A program made the position numbers and the translations under genes. 36,339 nucleotides of DNA from Accumulibacter sp. GTDB lineage: Bacteria > Pseudomonadota > Gammaproteobacteria > Burkholderiales > Rhodocyclaceae. The notes beneath the pieces were generated by a model. The model saw only the letters and a program-made list of their open reading frames with translations. It was not told the origin of the DNA and did no database searches. The stretch spans positions 1 through 36,339 of the forward strand of contig JAFLDO010000045.1 in the NCBI GenBank assembly GCA_017302455.1. Reading direction: 5' to 3'. This document shows, piece after piece, positions 11,112 to 19,802 of the stretch. Position 1 is the stretch's first letter; each line of letters opens with the position of its first letter.

Positions 11112-11172
11112 GACATTCGCCCAGTTGCAAAAAAATGGCCCATTTCATGGCCCTTTCCGAGCCATTCCAGGC

Positions 11173-11200
11173 TTGTCGCTTTTCCGCATGATGGCATAAT
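11173..11200 (+). promoter_or_regulatory. Candidate sigma-70 promoter of the ParA/H1-like operon
   Basis: TTGTCG (-35-like) and CATAAT (-10-like) are separated by 16 bases and lie 71 bases upstream of the ParA-type start. The match is moderate and the position is sensible. Confidence 0.5.
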
Positions 11201-11218
11201 TGATCGTTATGCAGAATT

Positions 11219-11240
11219 TTCACATCAATCTTCACATCAA
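11219..11240 (+). repeat. Direct repeat TTCACATCAA x2
   Basis: Two perfect copies of TTCACATCAA (11219-11228 and 11231-11240), 12 bases start to start, lie between the candidate promoter and the ParA-type ATG. Their spacing of just over one helical turn would suit cooperative binding, for example by the operon's own product. Function is unproven. Confidence 0.45.
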
Positions 11241-11270: not shown

Positions 11271-11933
11271 ATGGCGCTAGGCCGCGTGATCGCTGTCGTC
11301 TCGCAGAAGGGCGGCGCCGGCAAGACTACTGTCGCCATGCAAATGGGGGGGGGCTTCCATGCGATCGGCGCCACCGTGCTGCTTGTTGACCTCGATCCGC
11401 AGGAGAGTGCGTTTCGCTGGGCCGAATCGGCGCCACTGCTCGACTCGGACCTGCAACTCGACGTGCGCAAGATGTCCGGGCTGGAACTGATCAAGCACAT
11501 CGGCGATTTGCAGGGCGAAGCGGACTACATCGTGCTCGATACACCGCCCTCGATCTACCACCCGTCGACGCTCGCCGCGCTGGCGGTGGCCCATCTGGCG
11601 GTGGTTCCGGCCGTGCCGAGTCCGACCGACCTGTGGTCGACGCTCGCCGTCGAGCGACTGATCCTCAACCGTATGGAGCAAAGCCATCGCCTGCACGGCT
11701 GCATTGTCCCGAACCGCGTACAGAACACCGCACTGGCAACGGATGTGCTTGAATTGTTGCATGAATTCACCTTGCCGATCCTCGATGCGATGCTTTGCCA
11801 GCGCAACGCCTATGCTCAAAGCGCGGTCATCGGGGCGTCTGTTTTTCAACTGGGCTCTGGTGCCGAAGCCGCGCAAGGCGAGGTCCGCAAGCTGATCGCA
11901 GCCGTTCTTAAACAACTGGGAGACACCCGATGA
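11271..11933 (+). CDS. ParA/MinD-family ATPase (orphan cargo-positioning type)
   Basis: The 220-residue ATPase has the deviant Walker A motif KGGAGKTT (residues 13-20) with signature Lys13, Walker A' LLVDLDPQ (Asp40) and Walker B YIVLDTPP (Asp90). These define the ParA/MinD family, whose dimers bind DNA or membrane and move or space plasmids, chromosomes, carboxysomes, chemoreceptors or other cargo. No ParB gene or chromosomal partition genes are nearby. The stop overlaps the start of the Lys/Ala/Pro-rich gene (ATGA), so the two proteins are made together and that protein is the likely partner. A run of nine G bases (11345-11353) encodes Met-Gly-Gly-Gly just after the P-loop helix and could slip. 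The family is firm; the cargo is unknown. Confidence 0.85.
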   Translation: MALGRVIAVVSQKGGAGKTTVAMQMGGGFHAIGATVLLVDLDPQESAFRWAESAPLLDSDLQLDVRKMSGLELIKHIGDLQGEADYIVLDTPPSIYHPSTLAALAVAHLAVVPAVPSPTDLWSTLAVERLILNRMEQSHRLHGCIVPNRVQNTALATDVLELLHEFTLPILDAMLCQRNAYAQSAVIGASVFQLGSGAEAAQGEVRKLIAAVLKQLGDTR

Positions 11934-12730
11934 CGACACCGACAAGTGCCAGCACCAACAAGACCGCTCTGCGGGCCAGCCTCAAGAAGGAAGACGAATC
12001 GCTCGCCGAGCGTCTGGTCGCTACCGATATACCGCTGGTCGCCACGCCCGAACCCGAGGCTCCGGTCGTCGCCCCCGTCGCCGCGCCGGCCAGTCCGCCG
12101 CCACTTGCCGCGGCACCGGCCCGCAAGGCCGCCGCCAAGCCCGCCGCCAAGCCCGCTACCGCCAAGCCCGCTACCGCCAAGCCGGCAGTGGCCAAGCCGG
12201 CTGCTGACGTGGTGCCGACACCGCCCGCGAAAGCGCCCGCCAAGGCGGCGAAAAAGGTGGCTGCCGTGACGGCGGCGACGACGAAAGCAGCCGAGCCGGT
12301 TACCGCAGCGAAAGCGAAGCCCGTGAGCCGGAAAGCGGCCGCCGCGGCCAAGCCGGTGGCGGCCAAGCCCGCCAAGCCCAGCAAACCTGTGAAAGTGGCG
12401 ACGAAGGACAGCGCAGCCGCTGCACCAGCGACGGCAACGGAAGATGCAGGCAAGAAAGCCGCCAAGCTGGCGGCAACGGTAGCGAACATCGAGAAGGCGG
12501 CCAAGGAGAAGGGCGACAGGATCGTGCGCTACACGGTCGAGTTGCTGAAGAGCGAGGAGGCCGCCATTGAAGCCGTGCGTGCCGAACTGGCCAAGGGCGC
12601 CGGCTGGGCGGCGAGCAAATCCGACATCCTGCGCGCCGGGGTACGGGTGTTTGCCGAACAGCGGGTCGAGCAGATGAAAGAGTTGCTGGGCGCGCTGGCC
12701 ACCCTCTCGAAGGGCAAGAAGAAGGGCTGA
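11930..12730 (+). CDS. Lys-Ala-Pro-rich histone-H1/AlgP-like protein, likely ParA partner
   Basis: The 266-residue protein has three parts. An N-terminal segment (about 1-35) contains basic and acidic residues (ALRASLKKEDESLAERL). A long disordered region (about 40-175) is almost entirely Ala, Pro, Lys, Thr and Val with repeated AKPA-type units. A predicted helical C-terminus (about 178-266) ends in Lys-Gly-Lys-Lys-Lys-Gly. The middle resembles eukaryotic H1-like bacterial proteins such as AlgP, which bind DNA and in Pseudomonas are linked to polyphosphate granules. GGGAG precedes ATG 11930, and the ATGA overlap with the ParA-type gene indicates translational coupling. A short basic N-terminus is also how many ParA partners stimulate the ATPase. 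Function as a ParA-linked adaptor is inferred. The R. eutropha PHB protein PhaM is of similar size but carries its Lys/Ala repeats at the C-terminus. Confidence 0.75.
   Translation: MTTPTSASTNKTALRASLKKEDESLAERLVATDIPLVATPEPEAPVVAPVAAPASPPPLAAAPARKAAAKPAAKPATAKPATAKPAVAKPAADVVPTPPAKAPAKAAKKVAAVTAATTKAAEPVTAAKAKPVSRKAAAAAKPVAAKPAKPSKPVKVATKDSAAAAPATATEDAGKKAAKLAATVANIEKAAKEKGDRIVRYTVELLKSEEAAIEAVRAELAKGAGWAASKSDILRAGVRVFAEQRVEQMKELLGALATLSKGKKKG
12121..12200 (+). repeat. In-frame 15-base tandem repeat encoding ATAKP
   Basis: Within the H1-like gene the unit GCTACCGCCAAGCCC occurs at 12155-12169 and again at 12170-12184 with one change. Degenerate AKP-coding units lie on both sides. Such repeats readily expand or contract and keep the frame, so the length of the disordered tail probably varies between strains. 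Confidence 0.7.
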
Positions 12731-12916: not shown

Positions 12917-13555
12917 ATGTTTAGTAGTCTGATGCCGAATCGCAGTGAATTCTTTGAGCTTCTCACCGCGCACTCAGAACAGGTGGTGGCCGGGGCCAAC
13001 GCAACCTTGCGTCTGATCAATGGTCTGGGCGATGCGGGCGCCAATCTTTCGGTGCTGGTCGACGAAGTCAATCAACACGAGCAGACCGGTGACCAGATCA
13101 AGGCCAAGGTGATCGGGCGGCTGCACCAGTCGTTCACGACGCCGATCAACCGCGACCAGATCCACGCGCTGATCAGTGATCTCGACATGACGCTGAACAT
13201 CCTGCAGAGCGTGGCTAATGCCGTAGGCATGTACAGCATCAAGCAGTCGACGGTGGAGGCGCGCGAAATGGCCGCACTTAGCGCTGACGCGTGCCTGCGC
13301 CTGAATCGTGCGGTGGCGGCGCTGGGCGACAAGTCGCGTGGCGCGGAAACGCTCAACCTGTGCAAGGAAATCGAGGAAATCGAGTCGAAGGCCGACAAGA
13401 TCCAGCACAAGGCGATCACCGCCCTGTTCCAGGACGGCGCCAACATCTGGCAGACGATGAAGTTGCGGGAGTTCTACTCGCTTCAGGAGGCGGTCCTCGA
13501 CTCTTGCCAGGAAGCGGCCAAGATGATCGAAGAGATCCTGATCGAAAACTCTTGA
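12917..13555 (+). CDS. PhoU-like DUF47 protein, Pit accessory protein (first copy)
   Basis: The 212-residue, all-alpha soluble protein belongs to the DUF47/PhoU-like family, starting MFSSLMPNRSEFFELLTAHSE and containing the typical Glu/Asp-rich helix EIEEIESKADKIQ. DUF47 proteins are nearly always encoded next to Pit phosphate carriers and are thought to modulate them; PhoU-fold acidic helices bind metal ions. The carrier gene begins about 28 bases downstream. GGGAGG before ATG 12917 decides the start over a longer frame from 12836. It is a close paralogue of the protein at 14689-15324, sharing SEFFELL-AHSE-V-AGANA. Confidence 0.92.
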   Translation: MFSSLMPNRSEFFELLTAHSEQVVAGANATLRLINGLGDAGANLSVLVDEVNQHEQTGDQIKAKVIGRLHQSFTTPINRDQIHALISDLDMTLNILQSVANAVGMYSIKQSTVEAREMAALSADACLRLNRAVAALGDKSRGAETLNLCKEIEEIESKADKIQHKAITALFQDGANIWQTMKLREFYSLQEAVLDSCQEAAKMIEEILIENS

Positions 13556-13583
13556 GGGGCTGCGGAAAATGGAAGGCCTAAAT

Positions 13584-14582
13584 ATGAGCATCTGGACGCT
13601 GGGCTTGCTGATCGCAATCGCTCTGGCGTTCGACTTCATGAACGGGTTTCACGATGGCGCCAACTCGATCTCGACGATCGTCGCAACCGGTGCCCTGACC
13701 CCGAAACAGGCGGTGCTGTTCGCCGCGTTCTTCAACTTTGCCGCGCTGTGGGTGTTTGAACTCAAAGTGGCGGCGACCATCGGCAAGGGCACGGTCGACC
13801 CGAGTTTCGTTGATTACTACGTGATCTTCGGCGCCTTGATGGGGGCCTTGATCTGGAACATCATCACCTGGTATTACGGCATCCCGTCGTCGTCCTCGCA
13901 CGCGCTGGTCGGCGGCCTGGTCGGAGCGACGGTGGCCAAGGCGGCTTCGGGTGCGCCGATCGTCTGGGCTGGTTTCGGCAAGATCCTTGCCTTCATCATC
14001 ATTTCGCCGCTGGTCGGGGTAATCCTGGGTGGCTTGCTGATGGTGCTGGTCGCCTGGATTTTCCGAGGGACCTCGCCGTATCAGGCCGGCAAGTTCTTCA
14101 AGGGCGGGCAATTGATCGCCGCCGCCTTGTATAGCTTGGGCCATGGCGGCAACGATGCGCAGAAGACGATCGGCATCATCTGGCTGTTGATGATCACGGC
14201 CGGTGTAGCGACCAAGGACGTCGCGACGCTGCCGACTTGGGTGATCTACTCCTGCTACTTCGCGATCGCCTGGGGAACCTACCTCGGTGGCTGGCGGATC
14301 GTCAAGACCATGGGTACCAAGATCACCAAGCTCAATGCGGTCAGCGGTTCGTGTGCCTCGATGGGTGGCGCGATCGCTCTGGGGCTGGCGACCCTGGGCG
14401 GCATTCCGGTGTCGACGACGCATACCATCACCGGCGCGATCATCGGTGTCGGGGCGGCCACCGACGTCAAGGCGGTGCGCTGGGCGATCACTGCCAACCT
14501 GATGGTCGCCTGGGTGCTGACGATTCCGGCCGCGGGTCTGGTCGCTGCGATCTTCTGGTACCTCGGGACGAAGTTCCTGTAG
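13584..14582 (+). CDS. pit: PiT-family inorganic phosphate transporter (first copy)
   Basis: This inner-membrane symporter takes up phosphate (as metal-phosphate in characterised bacterial Pit proteins) with protons. The 332-residue protein carries the two inverted PiT signatures, DFMNGFHDGANSI near the N-terminus and SLGHGGNDAQKTIG in the second half, plus the helix-breaking GIPSSSSHALVGG and GIPVSTTHTITGA segments of the repeat. About ten hydrophobic helices are evident. ATG 13584 has GGAAGG seven bases upstream and gives the usual N-terminus; ATG 13569 in the same frame would add five residues. It is flanked on both sides by DUF47 genes and is shorter than the second carrier at 16392. Confidence 0.93.
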   Translation: MSIWTLGLLIAIALAFDFMNGFHDGANSISTIVATGALTPKQAVLFAAFFNFAALWVFELKVAATIGKGTVDPSFVDYYVIFGALMGALIWNIITWYYGIPSSSSHALVGGLVGATVAKAASGAPIVWAGFGKILAFIIISPLVGVILGGLLMVLVAWIFRGTSPYQAGKFFKGGQLIAAALYSLGHGGNDAQKTIGIIWLLMITAGVATKDVATLPTWVIYSCYFAIAWGTYLGGWRIVKTMGTKITKLNAVSGSCASMGGAIALGLATLGGIPVSTTHTITGAIIGVGAATDVKAVRWAITANLMVAWVLTIPAAGLVAAIFWYLGTKFL

Positions 14583-14597
14583 CTCGGGAGCGCTTGC

Positions 14598-14631
14598 CTC
14601 ACTGGCGCCCCGGAGACAGGGCGTCAGTGAG
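14598..14631 (+). other. Strong hairpin between pit and the second DUF47 gene
   Basis: A 13-base-pair stem (CTCACTGGCGCCC with GGGCGTCAGTGAG, one G-U pair in RNA) closes an eight-base loop. There is no T-run after it, so it is unlikely to be a complete rho-independent terminator. It may shield the pit mRNA 3' end or partly reduce read-through into the next gene. Confidence 0.65.
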
Positions 14632-14647
14632 TGCCGGCCATCGGAAC

Positions 14648-14674
14648 CAGTCAATAGTCGTCACCACAGTCAAT
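14648..14674 (+). repeat. CAGTCAAT direct repeat before the second DUF47 gene
   Basis: CAGTCAAT occurs at 14648-14655 and 14667-14674, 19 bases apart, just upstream of the AAGGGAG ribosome site. The units resemble Pho-box halves (CTGTCAT) only loosely and the spacing is not the 11 bases expected, so a PhoB site is not claimed. Confidence 0.35.
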
Positions 14675-14688
14675 CAAGGGAGTTACTC

Positions 14689-15324
14689 ATGTTACCCAAG
14701 CGGTCCGAGTTTTTTGAGCTTCTCGCGGCACACAGCGAGCGCGTCCTGGCGGGGGCTAATGCCATGCTCCGCCTGGTCAACAGTCTGGGGGTCAGCAAGC
14801 AGGACGTTGCCGCGCTGGTCGAAGAAATCAACATGAACGAGACCAGTGCAGACCAGATCAAGGCGGATCTGCTGCTGATGCTGCACAAGTCCTTCGTCAC
14901 GCCGCTCAACCGGGACCAGGTTTACAAATTGACGCTGGACATCGACAGCGTCATGAATGCTGTCCAGGATGTCGCGCAGGCCGCCAGCATCTACAACATC
15001 ACCGAGGCGAATACCGAGTCGCACGAACTGGCATCGATGACGGTCGACGCCTGCACCCGCTTGACGCGCGCCATCGCGGCGCTGAAGGACCGGCAGCGCA
15101 GCCAGGAAACCGTCGATCTGTGCGTCGAAATCGAGCGCATCGAGGAGAAGTCCGTCGCGGTCATGTACAAGGCCATCAAGAGCCTGTTCGAGACCGAGGG
15201 CGACGATGTGGCCGCCTTGCGGGCGATGCGCCTGCGGCAGTTCTATGCGCTGCAGGAGAAGGTTCTGCGCGCTAGCAAGAAGTCGGCCCAGACGGTCGAA
15301 GAGATCCTGCTGCAGAATGCCTGA
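14689..15324 (+). CDS. PhoU-like DUF47 protein, Pit accessory protein (second copy)
   Basis: The 211-residue protein is a paralogue of the product at 12917: the first residues LPKRSEFFELLAAHSERVLAGANAMLRL differ at few positions and the acidic helix VEIERIEEKSVAVMYKAI is in the same place. AAGGGAG lies six bases before ATG 14689. The gene follows the first Pit carrier after a 106-base gap holding a strong hairpin and a direct repeat, and is followed by a terminator at 15373. Two DUF47 proteins around one carrier suggest two regulators, hetero-oligomers or recent duplication. Their separate roles cannot be told from sequence. Confidence 0.92.
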   Translation: MLPKRSEFFELLAAHSERVLAGANAMLRLVNSLGVSKQDVAALVEEINMNETSADQIKADLLLMLHKSFVTPLNRDQVYKLTLDIDSVMNAVQDVAQAASIYNITEANTESHELASMTVDACTRLTRAIAALKDRQRSQETVDLCVEIERIEEKSVAVMYKAIKSLFETEGDDVAALRAMRLRQFYALQEKVLRASKKSAQTVEEILLQNA

Positions 15325-15331
15325 GCGATGA

Positions 15332-15351
15332 CCAGGCGTGGCAACGCCTGG
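15332..15351 (+). other. 8-bp hairpin after the second DUF47 gene
   Basis: CCAGGCGT-GGCA-ACGCCTGG is a perfect stem starting eight bases after the stop codon. It has no T-run and precedes the true terminator by about 20 bases; it probably forms part of the 3' untranslated structure. Confidence 0.5.
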
Positions 15352-15372
15352 GCCGGAAGCGCAGCAAACGGG

Positions 15373-15402
15373 CGCCCCGAAGTCGGGGCGTTTCGTTTTT
15401 CT
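15373..15402 (+). terminator. Rho-independent terminator
   Basis: CGCCCC-GAAGTC-GGGGCG is followed directly by TTTCGTTTTTCT. It closes the DUF47-pit-DUF47 unit. A similar stem with CGCCCCG and CGGGGCG ends the nuo operon. Confidence 0.88.
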
Positions 15403-15466
15403 GGATCGGCAGCCGCGGCAGTCGCCCGCGGCTGCCTTGCCGAGCAGCGAAACCGCACCGCGTAGC

Positions 15467-15495
15467 CTGACGGGCGCCGAACTTCGGAATACAAT
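15467..15495 (+). promoter_or_regulatory. Candidate sigma-70 promoter for the TIGR00153-pit unit
   Basis: CTGACG and TACAAT are 17 bases apart, 100 bases upstream of the start at 15595 and downstream of a terminator. The arrangement suggests that the second half of the phosphate module is a separate transcription unit. Confidence 0.5.
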
Positions 15496-15594
15496 TCGTG
15501 CGGGAGGCGGCAAGTGGCGCATTCGTTGCCGGGGTCGATGTCTACCCCTCCCACCCGTGCAGGATACCTTCAGTTGTGTCAGCGGAGACGCCCG

Positions 15595-16278
15595 ATGTCG
15601 CTCACCAATCCGATTGCTGCCTTGTTCGGCAAATCGCCGTTCAAGCCCCTGCAACAGCACATGCGCATCGTCATGGAATGCGTCGGCGAAGTGCCTGCTT
15701 TGTTCCAGGCCCTGATTGACGACGATCAGGAACAGCTTGGCGAGTTGAAAAACCGGATTTTCATCAAGGAGGGGGAGGCTGACGCTGTCCGCGCGGATAT
15801 GTGCGATCACCTGCCGCGCAGTCTGCTCCTGGCGGTGGACCGGCAGGACCTGCTCGAGCTGTTGGCGATGCAGGATGCCATCGCCGACACCGCGCAGGAT
15901 ATCGCCGGTCTGCTGGTCGAGCGCAGGATGGAAGTCCCGGCAGGCATGGCCGAGCCGCTGATGCGACTGGTGGCCCGTTGCGTCGACACCTGTGCACTGG
16001 CGCACAGTATCGTCGAGGAGCTTGATCAGTTGCTGGAGACGGGCTTCCGGGGTCGTGAGGCCGAGCGCGTGCAGGCGATGGTCGTCGAACTCGGGCACAT
16101 GGAGAGCGACACGGACGTGATGGGAATGGACCTCGCGCGCGCCCTTTTCGCCGAGGAAGACAACCACAAACCGGTCTCCGTCATGTTCTGGTATCAGTTG
16201 ATCCAGTGGGTCGGAACGCTGGCCGACTACGCCGAAAGAGTAGGCGAAACGCTGCGCCTGCTGATTGCCCGCCGATGA
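15595..16278 (+). CDS. TIGR00153/DUF47-family PhoU-like protein (third copy)
   Basis: The 227-residue helical protein begins MSLTNPIAALFGKSPFKPLQ, the hallmark of the TIGR00153 branch of DUF47/PhoU-like proteins, distinct from the two DUF47 proteins upstream. Members of this branch are usually encoded beside a long-form Pit carrier, as here (113 bases upstream of the carrier at 16392). Acidic helices such as IKEGEADAVRADM are typical of the metal-binding PhoU fold. GGAG eight bases before ATG 15595 decides the start; the frame is open further upstream but without a ribosome site. It is probably a modulator of the second carrier. Confidence 0.9.
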   Translation: MSLTNPIAALFGKSPFKPLQQHMRIVMECVGEVPALFQALIDDDQEQLGELKNRIFIKEGEADAVRADMCDHLPRSLLLAVDRQDLLELLAMQDAIADTAQDIAGLLVERRMEVPAGMAEPLMRLVARCVDTCALAHSIVEELDQLLETGFRGREAERVQAMVVELGHMESDTDVMGMDLARALFAEEDNHKPVSVMFWYQLIQWVGTLADYAERVGETLRLLIARR

Positions 16279-16391
16279 GCAGGGAGTCGGCAGCGTGACC
16301 AAGGCGGCCTGCCGGCGAGATTCGTCGGCGTCCGAGTCCGGATGCCGCACCTTCCCGTTCCGCCCTTGGACCTGCCGGTGAGGCGTTGAGC

Positions 16392-17654
16392 ATGGAAATC
16401 ATCGCTCAGCATCAAACCCTCTTCCTGGCGCTGGCTCTCGCCTGCGGCCTTTACATGACGTGGGGGATCGGCGCCAACGATGTCGCCAACGCCATGGGCA
16501 CCACGGTCGGCTCCGGGGCTATCACGGTCAGGCAGGCTGTCGTTCTGGCTGCGACGATGGAGTTCCTCGGCGCCTATCTGGCGGGCGGCGCCGTGGCCGA
16601 CACCATCGCCAAGGGCATCATCGATGGCGAGCTTTTCCGACCGGTGCCGCATTTGCTGATGTTCGGCATGATCGCCGCACTGCTCGCCACCGGCATCTGG
16701 CTGATGGTCGCCACGCTGCGTGGCTGGCCGGTGTCCTCGACCCATACGATCGTCGGCGCCGTGTGCGGCGTCGGCGTTGCTGCGCTGGGTGTGGACGCGG
16801 TGCAATGGGAAATGATGGCTGAGATTGTCGCCAGCTGGTTGATTTCGCCGGTGCTTGGTGGCCTCGTGTCGCTGTTGTTGACGCTGAGCATTCGCCGATT
16901 CATTTTCAATACCCGCGATCCGGTCGGCGAGGCGCGCAAGTGGGCGCCAGTGTATGCCTTTCTGGTCGGCTGGATCGTTTCGCTGATCGTCGTCGTCAAG
17001 GGGCTCAAGCACGTCGACATCACACTCGGCAACCTCGAAGGGCAGGTGCTCGCCGTGGCGATCGGTGTCGTCGTCGCCATCGCCGCCAGGTTGATCATGA
17101 ACGGTGTGCAACTCGATGCGCGCGCCGACCGAGCCTTCCAGTACGCCAGCGTCGAGAGGCTGTTCATCCCGCAGATGGTATTCACCGGCGCGGCGATGGC
17201 CTTCGCGCACGGCTCCAACGACGTGGCCAATGGCATCGGCCCAATGGCGGCGGCGATTCAGATCATCGAAACGCAGGCGGTGTCGGCCACCTCACCGGTG
17301 ACGCCGTTGATGTTGTTCATCGGCGGCCTGGGCATCGTCGCCGGTCTGGCGACCTATGGTTACAAGGTGATGGCCACCCTCGGTCACAAGATCACCGAGC
17401 TGACGCCAACCCGCGCCTACTGTGCCACCATTGCCGCCGCCTTTGTTACCGTGGCGGCTTCCGGCTTGGGTCTGCCGGTGTCGACTACGCATATCGCCGT
17501 CGGCGCCGTGATGGGCGTCGGCATTGCCCGCGGCATCGGCGCCCTGGATCTTCGTGTCGTCAGCGGCATTGTCGTTTCCTGGCTCGTCACCGTTCCGGTT
17601 GGCGCTATCCTGGCGGCGATCACCTTCCACATCCTGCGCGCGTCGTTTTCCTAG
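16392..17654 (+). CDS. PiT-family inorganic phosphate transporter (second, long form)
   Basis: The 420-residue carrier has PiT signatures GIGANDVANAMGTTVGSGAI in the first half and FAHGSNDVANGIGP in the second. The paired GWPVSSTHTIVGA and GLPVSTTHIAVGA segments mark the inverted repeat, and about eleven to twelve membrane helices are evident. It matches the longer PHO4/PitA-like branch rather than the 332-residue type at 13584, so the cell has two different low-affinity phosphate carriers here, plausibly with different affinity or direction. ATG 16392 follows a GAGG element; a TTG two codons upstream is less likely. The next gene starts two bases after the stop, so the P-loop/phosphatase pair is probably co-transcribed. 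Confidence 0.93.
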   Translation: MEIIAQHQTLFLALALACGLYMTWGIGANDVANAMGTTVGSGAITVRQAVVLAATMEFLGAYLAGGAVADTIAKGIIDGELFRPVPHLLMFGMIAALLATGIWLMVATLRGWPVSSTHTIVGAVCGVGVAALGVDAVQWEMMAEIVASWLISPVLGGLVSLLLTLSIRRFIFNTRDPVGEARKWAPVYAFLVGWIVSLIVVVKGLKHVDITLGNLEGQVLAVAIGVVVAIAARLIMNGVQLDARADRAFQYASVERLFIPQMVFTGAAMAFAHGSNDVANGIGPMAAAIQIIETQAVSATSPVTPLMLFIGGLGIVAGLATYGYKVMATLGHKITELTPTRAYCATIAAAFVTVAASGLGLPVSTTHIAVGAVMGVGIARGIGALDLRVVSGIVVSWLVTVPVGAILAAITFHILRASFS

Positions 17655-17655
17655 A

Positions 17656-18345
17656 ATGGCGGCGACCCATCCAGCCGCCGGCGCGGCGTCAGGCGGTGCA
17701 GATCACCCCGGGGCGAGCGAAACCGGCGCCATTCCGGATCTGTCTACCCGACCTGTCGAGTCGCTGCAGAACTACAAGGGAATCGACTTCCCCGGTGACA
17801 TCCGCTATCGCCAGATTCTGGTGACCGGTCCGCCTGGTGCCGGCAAGAGCACCTTGATCGTGCATCTTGGCGGCTGGTCGGAGGAAGGTTACCTCGACCT
17901 CGGCAAGAAGCATTGGTGGCGATCCGAGATTCTCTCGGTGCGGCCGCGGGAGATCCATCTGGGCATGCCTTTCGTGGGTCTCGACAACGCTGTATCGGTT
18001 TTTGATGCCGAGTTCCTCGATCGTGACCCGCTGCCGCCGGTGGATTTCGCTCGCCTGGTGTTGCCACCTCGCAAGCGCTTCTTCTTTTCCGTCGACTGGT
18101 ATCGCCGTTACGTCTTCGAGTTCCTGCTCCCACCCGCGGATCTGGTCTTCGAGCGACGTCGCGAGCGGGCGCGGCATTGTACGCATCCGGTTGACGCGCA
18201 ACTCAGCCTGGAGATCTGCGCCGCCCAACTCGAGGTGTTTCGCCAGGTCGCCTCGTTCCTGCATCGGCAGGGCTTCTACGTCTATGTCCGTGAAGGGACG
18301 GACAGCATCCCAAGGCGCTTTCTCGACGCACCGTTGCAGCCGTGA
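17656..18345 (+). CDS. P-loop NTPase/kinase-like protein of unknown function
   Basis: The 229-residue soluble protein has Walker A GPPGAGKST (residues 58-66) after a strand RQILVT, in the style of small-molecule or polynucleotide kinases. A basic segment (FERRRERARHCTH, 165-177) could form a lid. The first 35 residues are Ala/Gly-rich and probably disordered. I do not recognise a named family. ATG 17656 lies two bases after the carrier's stop, and its own stop overlaps the GTG start of the phosphatase gene by four bases. The three genes therefore look like one operon. A protein or small-molecule kinase opposing the phosphatase is attractive but not shown; an AAA-like regulator of the phosphatase is an alternative. 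Confidence 0.75.
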   Translation: MAATHPAAGAASGGADHPGASETGAIPDLSTRPVESLQNYKGIDFPGDIRYRQILVTGPPGAGKSTLIVHLGGWSEEGYLDLGKKHWWRSEILSVRPREIHLGMPFVGLDNAVSVFDAEFLDRDPLPPVDFARLVLPPRKRFFFSVDWYRRYVFEFLLPPADLVFERRRERARHCTHPVDAQLSLEICAAQLEVFRQVASFLHRQGFYVYVREGTDSIPRRFLDAPLQP

Positions 18346-19802
18346 AGAGGCGCGCCGCCCGACGCCCGTTCAGAATTGCGAGCCTCTTCGCCTGGCTGAA
18401 GGCGTTGTCCGCGCGTTTGGGCTTCGGATGGGGCCATAACCTCAAACTCGGCGATGGCTATCGGCTCGGCAGCACCAAGGTGCGTATCCCTCTCGACGGC
18501 ATTCCGATCGAGATCACCCTCGGTCTCAACGACAGGCGTCTGCATCTCTACCCCGAAACCCGCCTCAACCCGCGTGGCGAGACGGCTCGGCTCGGCAGCT
18601 TCATAATTTTCGATCCGCGTACCCACCTTCGCCGGATCGGCGGCTTTCTGCGCCTGAGCCCGAAAAACTGGCTGGCCCTCGGCTCGGGAGACGAGGTTCA
18701 GCAGGCGATTTTCGACTACCCACCGGCGGTGGACGAGCAACACCTCGTGGTGATCTATGGCCGCGACGCGCTGGTGTTTCGCAATCTGAGCGATGCCGGC
18801 ACCGCTATCGCACCCATGCTCGATGAAGTCACATCGCTGCGGATGAGCAAGCTGCGGCGGCTGCGCGATATCTTCGGTGGTCCGCTTGAGCTATTGCCCC
18901 GCGATGAGGCCTTGCTGCTCATCGAAGCGGTCAATCTGCTCCTGCACGAGGAGATCTATCGCCCGCGGGACAGCCGGGGTCTGCCGGGCGGCTTGCTGGA
19001 ATTGCCGCATACCGTGACCCCGATTCTGGTTGCCGACCTGCATGCCCAGGTCGACAACCTGCTGACGGTACTGAGCCAGAATGCCTTTCTCGAGGCGATC
19101 GAGGAAGGCAGTGCGGTCCTCGTCATCCTTGGTGATGCGGTGCATAGCGAGGTCGATGGGCAACTCAGAGAGATGGTTGGGTCGATGCTGCTGATGGATC
19201 TGATCTTCCGGCTCAAGCTGCATTTTCCCAAGCAGGTGTTCTATGTTCGCGGCAACCACGATTCGTTCTCCGAGGACATCGCCAAGGACGGCATCCCGCA
19301 AGGCCTGCTGTGGGCCAAGGAACTCAGTGAGCGCCGTGGCACGGCATATCTGAAGGCGATGGGCGAGTTCTACCGGCTGTTGTCCTACGTCGTCGTTTCC
19401 GAGGACTTCATCGCCTGCCATGCGGCGGCGCCGAAGACCAAGGTCAGTCGGGAAATGCTGGTGCAGATTCACGACCACCCGGGGCTGATTCTTGAACTGA
19501 TCAACAACCGCCTGTACCGGGCGAATCGTCCGCAGGGCTACAACCGACGTGATGTGAAACGCTTCCGCCGCGCCCTGCAGGTCGAGCCCGGCACGCCCTT
19601 CATCGTCGGCCACACGCCCATAGATCGGGAGCAGACCCTGTGGCTGAACGTCGATGCGATTCGCAACCACCATGTGCTGTTCAGCGCACATCCCGACTGG
19701 GTAGGCGTTTTCACGCGTGTCGACGACACCATGATTCCTCTTGTTTACCCGGTGGATTCCCTGACGCCGATCATCAACGCATTGGCCGCGGAGCCGGGCT
19801 GA
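18342..19802 (+). CDS. FHA-like domain plus PPP-type metallophosphatase
   Basis: The 486-residue protein has an N-terminal part with a divergent FHA-like stretch (about 100-155: a GG-x-L-x-LSPKNW strand, DEQH in the place of SRxH, then RNLSDAGTAI like the DL-S-NGT end). The C-terminal phosphoesterase of the PPP type has all metal ligands: DLH (Asp232, His234), GDAVHSE (Asp265), GNHD (Asn305-His306-Asp307), CH (His360) and GHTP (His424). The usual GDxHG and GDxVDRG motifs are degenerate, so substrate choice may differ from classical Ser/Thr phosphatases. It starts with GTG 18342 inside the stop of the P-loop gene. FHA domains bind phosphothreonine. The phosphatase call is secure; the FHA call is tentative. 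Confidence 0.78.
   Translation: MKRRAARRPFRIASLFAWLKALSARLGFGWGHNLKLGDGYRLGSTKVRIPLDGIPIEITLGLNDRRLHLYPETRLNPRGETARLGSFIIFDPRTHLRRIGGFLRLSPKNWLALGSGDEVQQAIFDYPPAVDEQHLVVIYGRDALVFRNLSDAGTAIAPMLDEVTSLRMSKLRRLRDIFGGPLELLPRDEALLLIEAVNLLLHEEIYRPRDSRGLPGGLLELPHTVTPILVADLHAQVDNLLTVLSQNAFLEAIEEGSAVLVILGDAVHSEVDGQLREMVGSMLLMDLIFRLKLHFPKQVFYVRGNHDSFSEDIAKDGIPQGLLWAKELSERRGTAYLKAMGEFYRLLSYVVVSEDFIACHAAAPKTKVSREMLVQIHDHPGLILELINNRLYRANRPQGYNRRDVKRFRRALQVEPGTPFIVGHTPIDREQTLWLNVDAIRNHHVLFSAHPDWVGVFTRVDDTMIPLVYPVDSLTPIINALAAEPG

What the first reader, a model, noticed from the sequence alone, without database searches (positions are those of the whole stretch)
11271..12730. ParA-type ATPase coupled to an H1/AlgP-like protein, beside a phosphate-uptake module: candidate polyphosphate-granule positioning system
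Seen: an orphan ParA/MinD ATPase with all three nucleotide motifs overlaps by ATGA a 266-residue protein with a short charged N-terminus, a long Ala/Lys/Pro disordered tail and a helical C-terminus. The next genes are DUF47-pit-DUF47-TIGR00153-pit. Known: ParA-type ATPases paired with a small adaptor space carboxysomes, chemoreceptor clusters and plasmids over the nucleoid; the H1-like protein AlgP affects polyphosphate granule spacing in Pseudomonas aeruginosa. Inferred: the pair could space polyphosphate granules or another nucleoid-bound body, with the KPA tail touching DNA or polyphosphate and the N-terminus stimulating the ATPase. I know of no described system with this exact make-up.
Basis: partly seen in the sequence, partly recalled or inferred. 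Interest (0 to 1): 0.82.

Follow-up and report, generated by a model that had tools for sequence, protein, structure and literature searches.

The report
ParA positioning pair, cargo unknown
A pair of genes in a phosphate-storing wastewater bacterium looks like a small cell-positioning machine whose adaptor protein probably binds DNA and controls its own genes; the proposed link to phosphate granules is not supported, and what the machine moves is still unknown.

Summary
In detail: a complete ParA ATPase (11271-11933) overlaps by ATGA a 266-residue Lys/Ala/Pro-rich protein (11930-12730), with phosphate-uptake genes next. The genome is very probably Candidatus Accumulibacter. The pair is kept in 12 sampled genera of the family. 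The partner is not AlgP-like: it has a conserved N-terminal peptide, a variable linker (almost absent in three relatives) and a conserved C-terminal domain that in relatives reads, weakly, as ribbon-helix-helix (RHH). An inverted repeat overlaps the parA -10 box in most Accumulibacter; another motif (GTATTAC type) lies before parA in 12 of 23 loci outside the genus. This fits an autoregulated ParF/ParG- or SegAB-like cassette. Against it: AlphaFold2 gave the window's C-terminus as a helical hairpin without a strand, and ParG was not found by profile. The phosphate genes are neighbours inside Accumulibacter (19 of 26 assessable loci) and in 0 of 24 loci outside; ppk1/pit co-occurrence is uninformative. 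Side finding: related ParAs have other adaptors (carboxysome McdB, a plasmid ParB core and, in one family, a weakly phasin-like protein). Cargo in Accumulibacter: unknown. New variant of a known kind.

The parts
11135..11153 (+). direct repeat ATGGCCC-N5-ATGGCCC upstream of the promoter; role unknown
   Evidence: TGGCCC-N6-TGGCCC in 18 of 26 Accumulibacter upstream regions; one hit in own genome at up to 3 mismatches, control pattern also one
11173..11200 (+). sigma-70-like promoter of parA: TTGTCG, 16 nt, CATAAT
   Evidence: -10 box conserved in the alignment of 26 Accumulibacter upstream regions, -35 partly
11192..11212 (+). candidate operator: inverted repeat GCATAA-N7-TTATGC overlapping the -10 box
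   Evidence: offset 13: mean 3.92 of 6 matched against 1.57 over all offsets; 14 of 26 loci with at least 5 of 6; in own genome one exact match here and two elsewhere at 3 mismatches, control one
11271..11933 (+). ParA-type ATPase, 220 aa, no N-terminal DNA-binding domain (type Ib size)
11930..12730 (+). adaptor protein, 266 aa
11957..12016 (+). adaptor residues 10-29, conserved N-terminal peptide NKTALRASLKKEDESLAERL, candidate ParA-contact helix
   Evidence: alignment; regular expression count
12050..12469 (+). adaptor residues 41-180, variable Ala/Lys/Pro-rich linker
   Evidence: nearly absent in L067, L069, L070
12512..12688 (+). core of the adaptor's C-terminal conserved domain, weakly ribbon-helix-helix-like by sequence; AlphaFold2 (Accumulibacter rows only) gives a helical hairpin
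   Evidence: against:
12917..17654 (+). DUF47-pit-DUF47-DUF47-pit phosphate-uptake genes (first start read); neighbours inside the genus only, probably not part of the machine

Best explanation
A chromosomal, self-regulating ParA/adaptor cassette of the ParF-ParG or SegA-SegB kind. Inferred mechanism: ParA-ATP dimers coat the nucleoid; the adaptor's N-terminal peptide docks on ParA and stimulates ATP hydrolysis and release; the adaptor's C-terminal domain dimerises and binds DNA at a palindrome over the parA -10 box, so it represses its own operon and builds a nucleoprotein complex there; the long Lys/Ala/Pro linker is a variable spacer that may add loose DNA contact. The thing moved is most likely that nucleoprotein complex (or another DNA-bound partner), not a polyphosphate granule. 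Shown: gene pair, its conservation, three-part adaptor, conserved operator-like elements before parA. Inferred: ParA contact, DNA binding by the adaptor, repression, transport, cargo.
For: Pair kept in Accumulibacter and in 23 of 24 loci outside the genus, mostly with overlapping or touching genes. Accumulibacter and most other family ParAs form one clade, SH-aLRT 99, 35 rows. Nearest solved ParAs by sequence: 5u1g ParA and TP228 ParF 4dzz, E about 1.5e-14. The window's C-terminal domain is found by a profile of 18 non-Accumulibacter members at 2.4e-17. RHH by sequence, at E up to 1: ParD-type RHH in 10 of 20 members, best 0.0016, RHH_1 in 3 of 20, best 2.8e-4, TIGR02606 in 13 of 20, best 4.9e-5. 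Operator: inverted repeat over -10 in Accumulibacter; GTATTAC-type motif in 12 of 23 other loci against 0.26 expected; that motif goes with an [RK][DE]SFS strand (12 of 15 against 0 of 6, Fisher 0.0015, not corrected for descent). For McdB, 20 N-terminal residues are necessary and sufficient for McdA binding (PMC12204374, passages). ParG (C-terminal RHH plus flexible N-terminal tail, PMC7308502, passages) and SegB (RHH, palindromes upstream of segAB, PMC12284271, passages) have a like plan.
Against: AlphaFold2 on 18 Accumulibacter rows gives a helical hairpin with no strand (79 residues: pLDDT 71.7, pTM 0.34; 59-residue core: pLDDT 87.4, pTM 0.62); Foldseek gives nothing at E 0.001. All RHH database hits are below curated cut-offs; the full-length window protein has TIGR02606 only at 0.0076 and no Pfam hit; seven unrelated Pfam families also hit one member each. 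ParG is not found by the family profile (0.95, inside the shuffle range; hhalign probability 3.7%). One species (L046, L086) lacks the C-terminal domain while keeping the repeat. In G125 the repeat is not seen at the parA promoter, and 12 of 26 Accumulibacter loci match at 4 or fewer of 6. No array of similar sites was seen, though G036 has a second exact copy elsewhere. No constant distance to dnaA. Three loci with the strand (L060, L062, L064) lack the motif.
Confidence: 0.5

Rival explanations
1. Polyphosphate-granule positioning: ParA spaces granules over the nucleoid, with the lysine-rich linker binding polyphosphate.
For: Genus is very probably Accumulibacter (22 of 23 near loci so titled), a known polyphosphate accumulator (recalled); DUF47a-pitA adjacent in 19 of 26 assessable Accumulibacter loci, and DUF47c 1.0-4.7 kb downstream in the other 7, with pitB after it in 6 (the L054 locus ends first); linker net charge +18; AlgP precedent in P. 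aeruginosa (PMC9239181, passages).
Against: No DUF47 or pit near the pair in 24 loci outside the genus, 5-17 kb each, 23 of them with downstream DNA (best E 0.13); ppk1 in 25 of 26 pair genomes and 116 of 124 others, pit in 24 of 26 against 105 of 124; in 15 proteins measured the linker is neither longer nor more basic in the 4 Accumulibacter than in others, and nearly vanishes in L067, L069, L070; adjacency inside one genus may be one evolutionary event.
Confidence: 0.12
2. Positioning of another protein body (PHA granule, chemoreceptor array, enzyme assembly), the adaptor's C-terminal domain being a cargo-binding helical hairpin.
For: AlphaFold2 hairpin; related ParA clades use adaptors for carboxysomes (L091; 35 of 53 further loci have a partner ending in WPD) and, in one family, weakly phasin-like adaptors.
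Against: No likely cargo gene was seen next to the pair: outside the genus the commonest neighbour cluster, in 13 of 24 loci, is a Cys/Met-metabolism PLP enzyme (Pfam PF01053 in the 3 members scanned). Operator-like elements point to DNA binding.
Confidence: 0.22
3. Relic of a plasmid partition cassette captured in the chromosome, kept without a transport function (only autoregulation, or addiction).
For: ParA family is the plasmid type Ib kind; 1295 plasmid records have relatives.
Against: All 1295 plasmid matches are under 60% identity, the top one listed 40%, while the pair is kept in 26 of 150 family genomes, 12 of 68 genera, with ParA at 50-91% identity, intact nucleotide motifs in the rows aligned and a conserved N-terminal peptide; a shared neighbour in 13 of 24 loci outside the genus suggests old vertical descent.
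Confidence: 0.12

Closest known systems
ParF-ParG of plasmid TP228 (type Ib partition)
   Same: small ParA without N-terminal DNA-binding domain (4dzz among the two best solved matches); partner with N-terminal tail and C-terminal RHH (as described in PMC7308502, passages); repeats upstream of the operon
   Different: chromosomal; Lys/Ala/Pro linker of 59-194 residues in 12 of 15 members measured; one palindrome and not an array of tetramers; ParG not recovered by profile
SegA-SegB of Sulfolobales
   Same: chromosomal ParA plus RHH partner that binds imperfect palindromes upstream of the operon (PMC12284271, passages)
   Different: SegB has many sites near segAB and across the chromosome; here few strong sites; no homology test made
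alpha-McdA/McdB carboxysome positioning
   Same: related ParA (L091, 36.5% identity to the query); short N-terminal ParA-binding region followed by a low-complexity stretch
   Different: alpha-McdB ends in R(V/I)WPD (PMC11321042, passages) and L091 sits by carboxysome genes; here a conserved ~60 residue C-terminal domain and no carboxysome genes beside it. Likeness of the N-terminal peptides is by eye: the regular expression fits only 5 of 37 McdBs, 0.92 expected
AlgP of Pseudomonas aeruginosa
   Same: Lys/Pro/Ala-rich disordered stretch
   Different: AlgP: helical N-terminal 124 aa and KPAA C-terminal tail (PMC9239181, passages); here the stretch is an internal linker and nearly absent in some members

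Membership tests
ParA/MinD ATPases | deviant Walker A with signature lysine, Walker A', Walker B | tested here: met
   KGGAGKTT, VDLDPQ, VLDTPP
ParA/MinD ATPases | ATP-dependent nucleoid binding | not testable with these tools
   needs biochemistry
type Ib (ParF-like) partition ATPase | short, no N-terminal HTH, matches ParA_partition NF041546 | tested here: inconclusive
   E 5.6e-51 but 173 bits against cut-off 180; size met
ParG / RHH centromere-binding partner | C-terminal ribbon-helix-helix | tested here: inconclusive
   for: (all below cut-off; 5 of 12 weak PDB hits are ParD antitoxins); against:
ParG / RHH centromere-binding partner | N-terminal ParA-stimulating tail | tested here: inconclusive
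   conserved peptide; function not tested
ParG / RHH centromere-binding partner | repeat sites upstream of the operon | tested here: met
   (binding itself not testable)
ParG / RHH centromere-binding partner | detectable homology to ParG | tested here: not met
   E 0.95; probability 3.7%; one ParG (L092) tested; so not filed as ParG
SegAB | many dispersed sites on the chromosome | tested here: not met
   1-5 sites at up to 2 mismatches in 11 genomes (controls 0-3); 2-4 sites at up to 3 mismatches in 4 Accumulibacter genomes (controls 1-2); looser motifs not searched
alpha-McdB | C-terminal R(V/I)WPD | tested here: not met
   window protein ends KGKKKG
AlgP | N-terminal ~124 aa helical domain plus C-terminal KPAA tail | tested here: not met
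   domain order against PMC9239181; the AlgP sequence itself was not compared

The most novel reading that the evidence does not exclude
One ParA clade works as a general positioning motor whose docking peptide has been joined in evolution to different cargo ends (RHH DNA binders, ParB cores, carboxysome WPD tails, phasin-like domains); in one unnamed family it would move PHA granules, and in Accumulibacter the lysine-rich adaptor would have been turned to a storage granule (polyphosphate or PHA).
Probability: 0.15. Interest if true: 0.85.

Novelty: new variant of a known kind. Interest (0 to 1): 0.5.

Why it matters
If right, a conserved chromosomal ParA cassette of unknown cargo is present in Accumulibacter and eleven other sampled genera of its family, and its adaptor can be tested piece by piece. 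Comparing adaptors (docking peptide kept, cargo end changed) gives a way to find cargoes for other ParA proteins whose partner is unknown; the phasin-like adaptors would be a hint of ParA-driven PHA granule spacing. I saw no paper on this pair or on a ParA-phasin adaptor in the listings; those listings are capped and the library holds only open-licence papers.

Tried and rejected
Polyphosphate link by neighbourhood and co-occurrence: genus-only, uninformative. AlgP/H1 reading: rejected on domain order and a linker that some members nearly lack. Origin-linked chromosome partition: distance of parA to dnaA in 8 genomes ranges from about 20 kb to about 2.1 Mb, so rejected as a rule (G018, an Accumulibacter, is about 49 kb away). 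Dispersed parS-like sites: not seen. ParG homology by profile: failed. Structure of the C-terminal domain: helical hairpin, no useful fold match. Rows dropped before counts: L048 for downstream genes (its contig ends inside the partner); L036, L048 and L086 among Accumulibacter and L071, L073 among the others; L086 and L080; L071, L073 and L080 in the strand table (the L071 partner was found later); L046, L048, L051, L057, L071, L073, L083 and L086 in the alignments, and L036 and L084 in its N-terminal part; 12 of 109 ParAs in the tree, and before that L001, L022, L029, L038, L040, L048, L051, L057, L058, L088, L090 and the short duplicates L005-L033. In one search, L043 was anchored on a wrong CATAAT and kept. 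The regular expressions, motif and repeat offset were chosen after seeing the sequences, so the expected numbers are guides, not tests. Group labels are partly taxonomic, so their clustering is partly built in; the tree has no bootstrap and a long outgroup branch. Weak Phasin_2 hits are common: at E up to 1 the model also rings in 9 of 14 control genomes, over its cut-off in 2.

Full report
What is there. The window holds a 220-residue ParA ATPase at 11271-11933 and, overlapping by ATGA, a 266-residue protein at 11930-12730. The ATPase has the signature P-loop, Walker A' and Walker B, matches Pfam AAA_31 (5.5e-17) and NCBIfam ParA_partition (5.6e-51; 173 bits, just under the cut-off of 180). 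Its best solved relatives by sequence are 5u1g (ParA) and 4dzz (ParF), both at about 1.5e-14. Downstream lie DUF47-PHO4-DUF47-DUF47-PHO4 genes. ParA of the window is 82-94% identical to 23 of the 25 loci found in genome contigs, 22 of them titled Accumulibacter, so the organism is very probably Candidatus Accumulibacter; the window's own record is not named.

How widely the pair is kept. In 150 genomes of the family, 26 genomes in 12 of 68 genera have a ParA at E 1e-40 or better. I read the next gene in 24 loci outside the genus, two of them (L081, L082) with a more distant ParA: 23 have the partner (L071 only seen), and L073 ends at the contig edge. The genes overlap or nearly touch in these loci. 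In 27 Accumulibacter loci, the window included, at least part of the partner is there; L048 shows only its start before the contig ends, L036 looks frame-broken and L051 is masked in part.

Anatomy of the partner. Aligned ends show three parts. First, a conserved N-terminal peptide, in the window NKTALRASLKKEDESLAERL (residues 10-29). Second, a linker of very variable length, 14 to 194 residues in the 15 proteins measured; L067, L069 and L070 have 14-20. Third, a conserved C-terminal domain, mostly with a basic tail. A profile made from 18 non-Accumulibacter C-termini finds the window's C-terminus at 2.4e-17, the best of 2000 shuffles being 0.0063, so the domain is one family.

What the C-terminal domain is. 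Twenty members were scanned one by one at E up to 1: ParD-type RHH in 10 of 20 (best 0.0016), RHH_1 in 3 of 20 (best 2.8e-4), seven other families in one member each; TIGR02606 in 13 of 20 (best 4.9e-5, the window's own member), twenty other families in one each. The full-length window protein gets TIGR02606 at 0.0076 and no Pfam family. A profile search of the PDB has 12 weak hits, 5 of them ParD antitoxins (0.037 to 0.46). The alternation V-x-Y-x-V-x-L in the window and V-x-D-x-F-x-M in relatives would fit a ribbon strand (by eye). Against this, AlphaFold2 with Accumulibacter rows only gave a helical hairpin and no strand, weakly for 79 residues (pLDDT 71.7, pTM 0.34) and more confidently for the 59-residue core (pLDDT 87.4, pTM 0.62); Foldseek found nothing at E 0.001. 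A monomer run with shallow rows may fail on an obligate dimer, but it may also be right. ParG of plasmid pRA2 was not found by the family profile (0.95, within the shuffles) and hhalign gave it probability 3.7%, though aligned strand to strand. So RHH is likely for the family and inconclusive for the window protein.

The promoter. parA has a sigma-70-like promoter, TTGTCG-16-CATAAT at 11173-11200, whose -10 box is conserved. In 26 Accumulibacter upstream regions the -10 box is the left arm of an inverted repeat, GCATAA-N7-TTATGC in the window; at that offset 3.92 of 6 bases match on average against 1.57 over all offsets, and 14 of 26 loci match at 5 or 6. Outside the genus another motif (GTATTAC, GTAATAC, TTATTAC or GTAATAA) occurs in the last 80 or so bases of 12 of 23 upstream regions against 0.26 expected from shuffles. 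Loci with an [RK][DE]SFS strand have it in 12 of 15 cases, those with another strand in 0 of 6 (Fisher 0.0015, no correction for descent). I chose these patterns after looking. Genome-wide: in the window's genome one exact copy, at parA, and two sites at 3 mismatches (control one); G079 and G018 have their best site at parA, G125 has none there. In 11 other genomes there are 1-5 sites at up to two mismatches against 0-3 for the control, one at parA in each; G036 has a further exact copy on contig C27, where one search also shows a second, distant ParA. This looks like an operator of the operon and not like an array of centromere sites.

Relatives of the ParA and their adaptors. In 399 genomes of the order 37, and in 369 of the class 25, have a match at 1e-30, the own genome counted in both. 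Of the 53 loci read from these (L094-L146), 35 have a partner ending in WPD (alpha-McdB type), 8 (all of one family, f41) a partner with another C-terminus, 2 a short RHH-like partner, 7 no such partner next door, 1 other. L091 lies in a Nitrobacter carboxysome operon. Two plasmid ParAs are followed by a ParB-family protein with a similar N-terminal peptide. Likeness of the peptides between groups is mostly by eye: the loose expression fits 24 of 24 Accumulibacter, 14 of 22 other family members, 5 of 8 f41, 2 of 2 and 2 of 2 of the small groups, but only 5 of 37 McdBs (0.92 expected). The f41 C-terminus is weakly phasin-like: Pfam 0.017 in 1 of 5, a genome-wide Phasin_2 search hits the partner locus in 2 of 6 f41 genomes (0.002 and 0.014, below the cut-off; the model also rings weakly in 9 of 14 control genomes), TIGR01841 0.072 in 1 of 4. 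In a quick tree of 97 ParAs the 14 Accumulibacter and 21 other family ParAs form one clade (SH-aLRT 99), the McdB-paired ones another (99, 37 rows), f41 another (99, 8 rows); adaptor labels need 11 changes (least possible 10; shuffled mean 55.5), labels being partly taxonomic. L081 and L082 fall outside the main clade.

The phosphate link. DUF47a-pitA follows the pair directly in 19 of 26 assessable Accumulibacter loci (18 of 25 without the duplicate L086); the other 7 have DUF47c 1.0-4.7 kb downstream, with pitB seen in 6. Outside the genus none of 24 loci (5-17 kb each; 23 with downstream DNA) has DUF47 or pit (best E 0.13). ppk1 is in 25 of 26 pair genomes and 116 of 124 others, PHO4 in 24 of 26 and 105 of 124 (Fisher 1.0 and 0.53). 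So the neighbourhood is a genus trait and weak evidence of cargo.

How it most likely works. From the anatomy: ParA on the nucleoid, adaptor N-terminus as ATPase contact, adaptor C-terminus as dimer and DNA binder that also represses the operon. For alpha-McdB the first 20 residues are necessary and sufficient for McdA binding, lysine 7 being critical (preprint PMC12204374, abstract and passages); ParG has a flexible N-terminal tail with an arginine-finger-like motif and a C-terminal RHH (PMC7308502, passages); SegB uses RHH to bind palindromes upstream of segAB and many other sites (PMC12284271, passages). The present pair has a like plan, but the transported thing is unknown; I favour its own DNA complex (0.5 for the whole statement). 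Distances between parA and dnaA in 8 genomes run from about 20 kb to about 2.1 Mb, so it is no ordinary origin partition system.

Novelty. A new variant of a known kind. The review PMC13052382 (passages) names AlgP for polyphosphate granules and says that the three Pha proteins for PHB granules have no homology to ParA. PMC10241942 (two passages) says that partner proteins of these ATPases are extremely diverse and that many such ATPases are called orphans. No paper on this pair appeared in the listings (listings only, except the papers named as read in passages).

Noticed in passing
L154 8183-8764 (G343), L161 8196-8819 (G485), and the other f41 loci L102, L104-L109, L112: ParA followed by an adaptor with a similar N-terminal peptide and, in 2 of 6 genomes searched, a weakly phasin-like C-terminus: candidate ParA-driven PHA-granule positioning.
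   Followed up: partly
L046 6660-7208, L086 8685-9233: In Candidatus Accumulibacter aalborgensis (two records of one contig) the adaptor has only 182 residues and lacks the C-terminal domain, while the -10 inverted repeat is intact.
   Followed up: no
window 11219-11240: TTCACATCAA occurs twice, 12 bases apart, between promoter and parA; of 26 Accumulibacter upstream regions only the window has two copies, L035 and L046 have one.
   Followed up: partly
window 11135-11153: ATGGCCC-N5-ATGGCCC core is in 18 of 26 Accumulibacter upstream regions; it is missing in the 7 loci without adjacent DUF47a-pitA and in L036, which has them: possible site of another regulator.
   Followed up: partly
L085 11692-13550: pitA of this Accumulibacter genome is split into two matches about 0.8 kb apart, as if interrupted by an insertion.
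   Followed up: no
L089, L093: Plasmid ParB/RepB/Spo0J proteins bear an N-terminal peptide like that of the adaptors (RKSAMRATLSAEKKSVEDRF in L093).
   Followed up: partly
G036:C27:12604-12619: A second exact AATAATA-N2-GTATTAC site, away from the parA pair of that genome, on the contig that also bears a distant second ParA.
   Followed up: no
window 17524-19802: A P-loop-like protein (by eye) without Pfam match at 1e-5 and a calcineurin-like phosphoesterase follow pitB and recur in many of the Accumulibacter loci.
   Followed up: no
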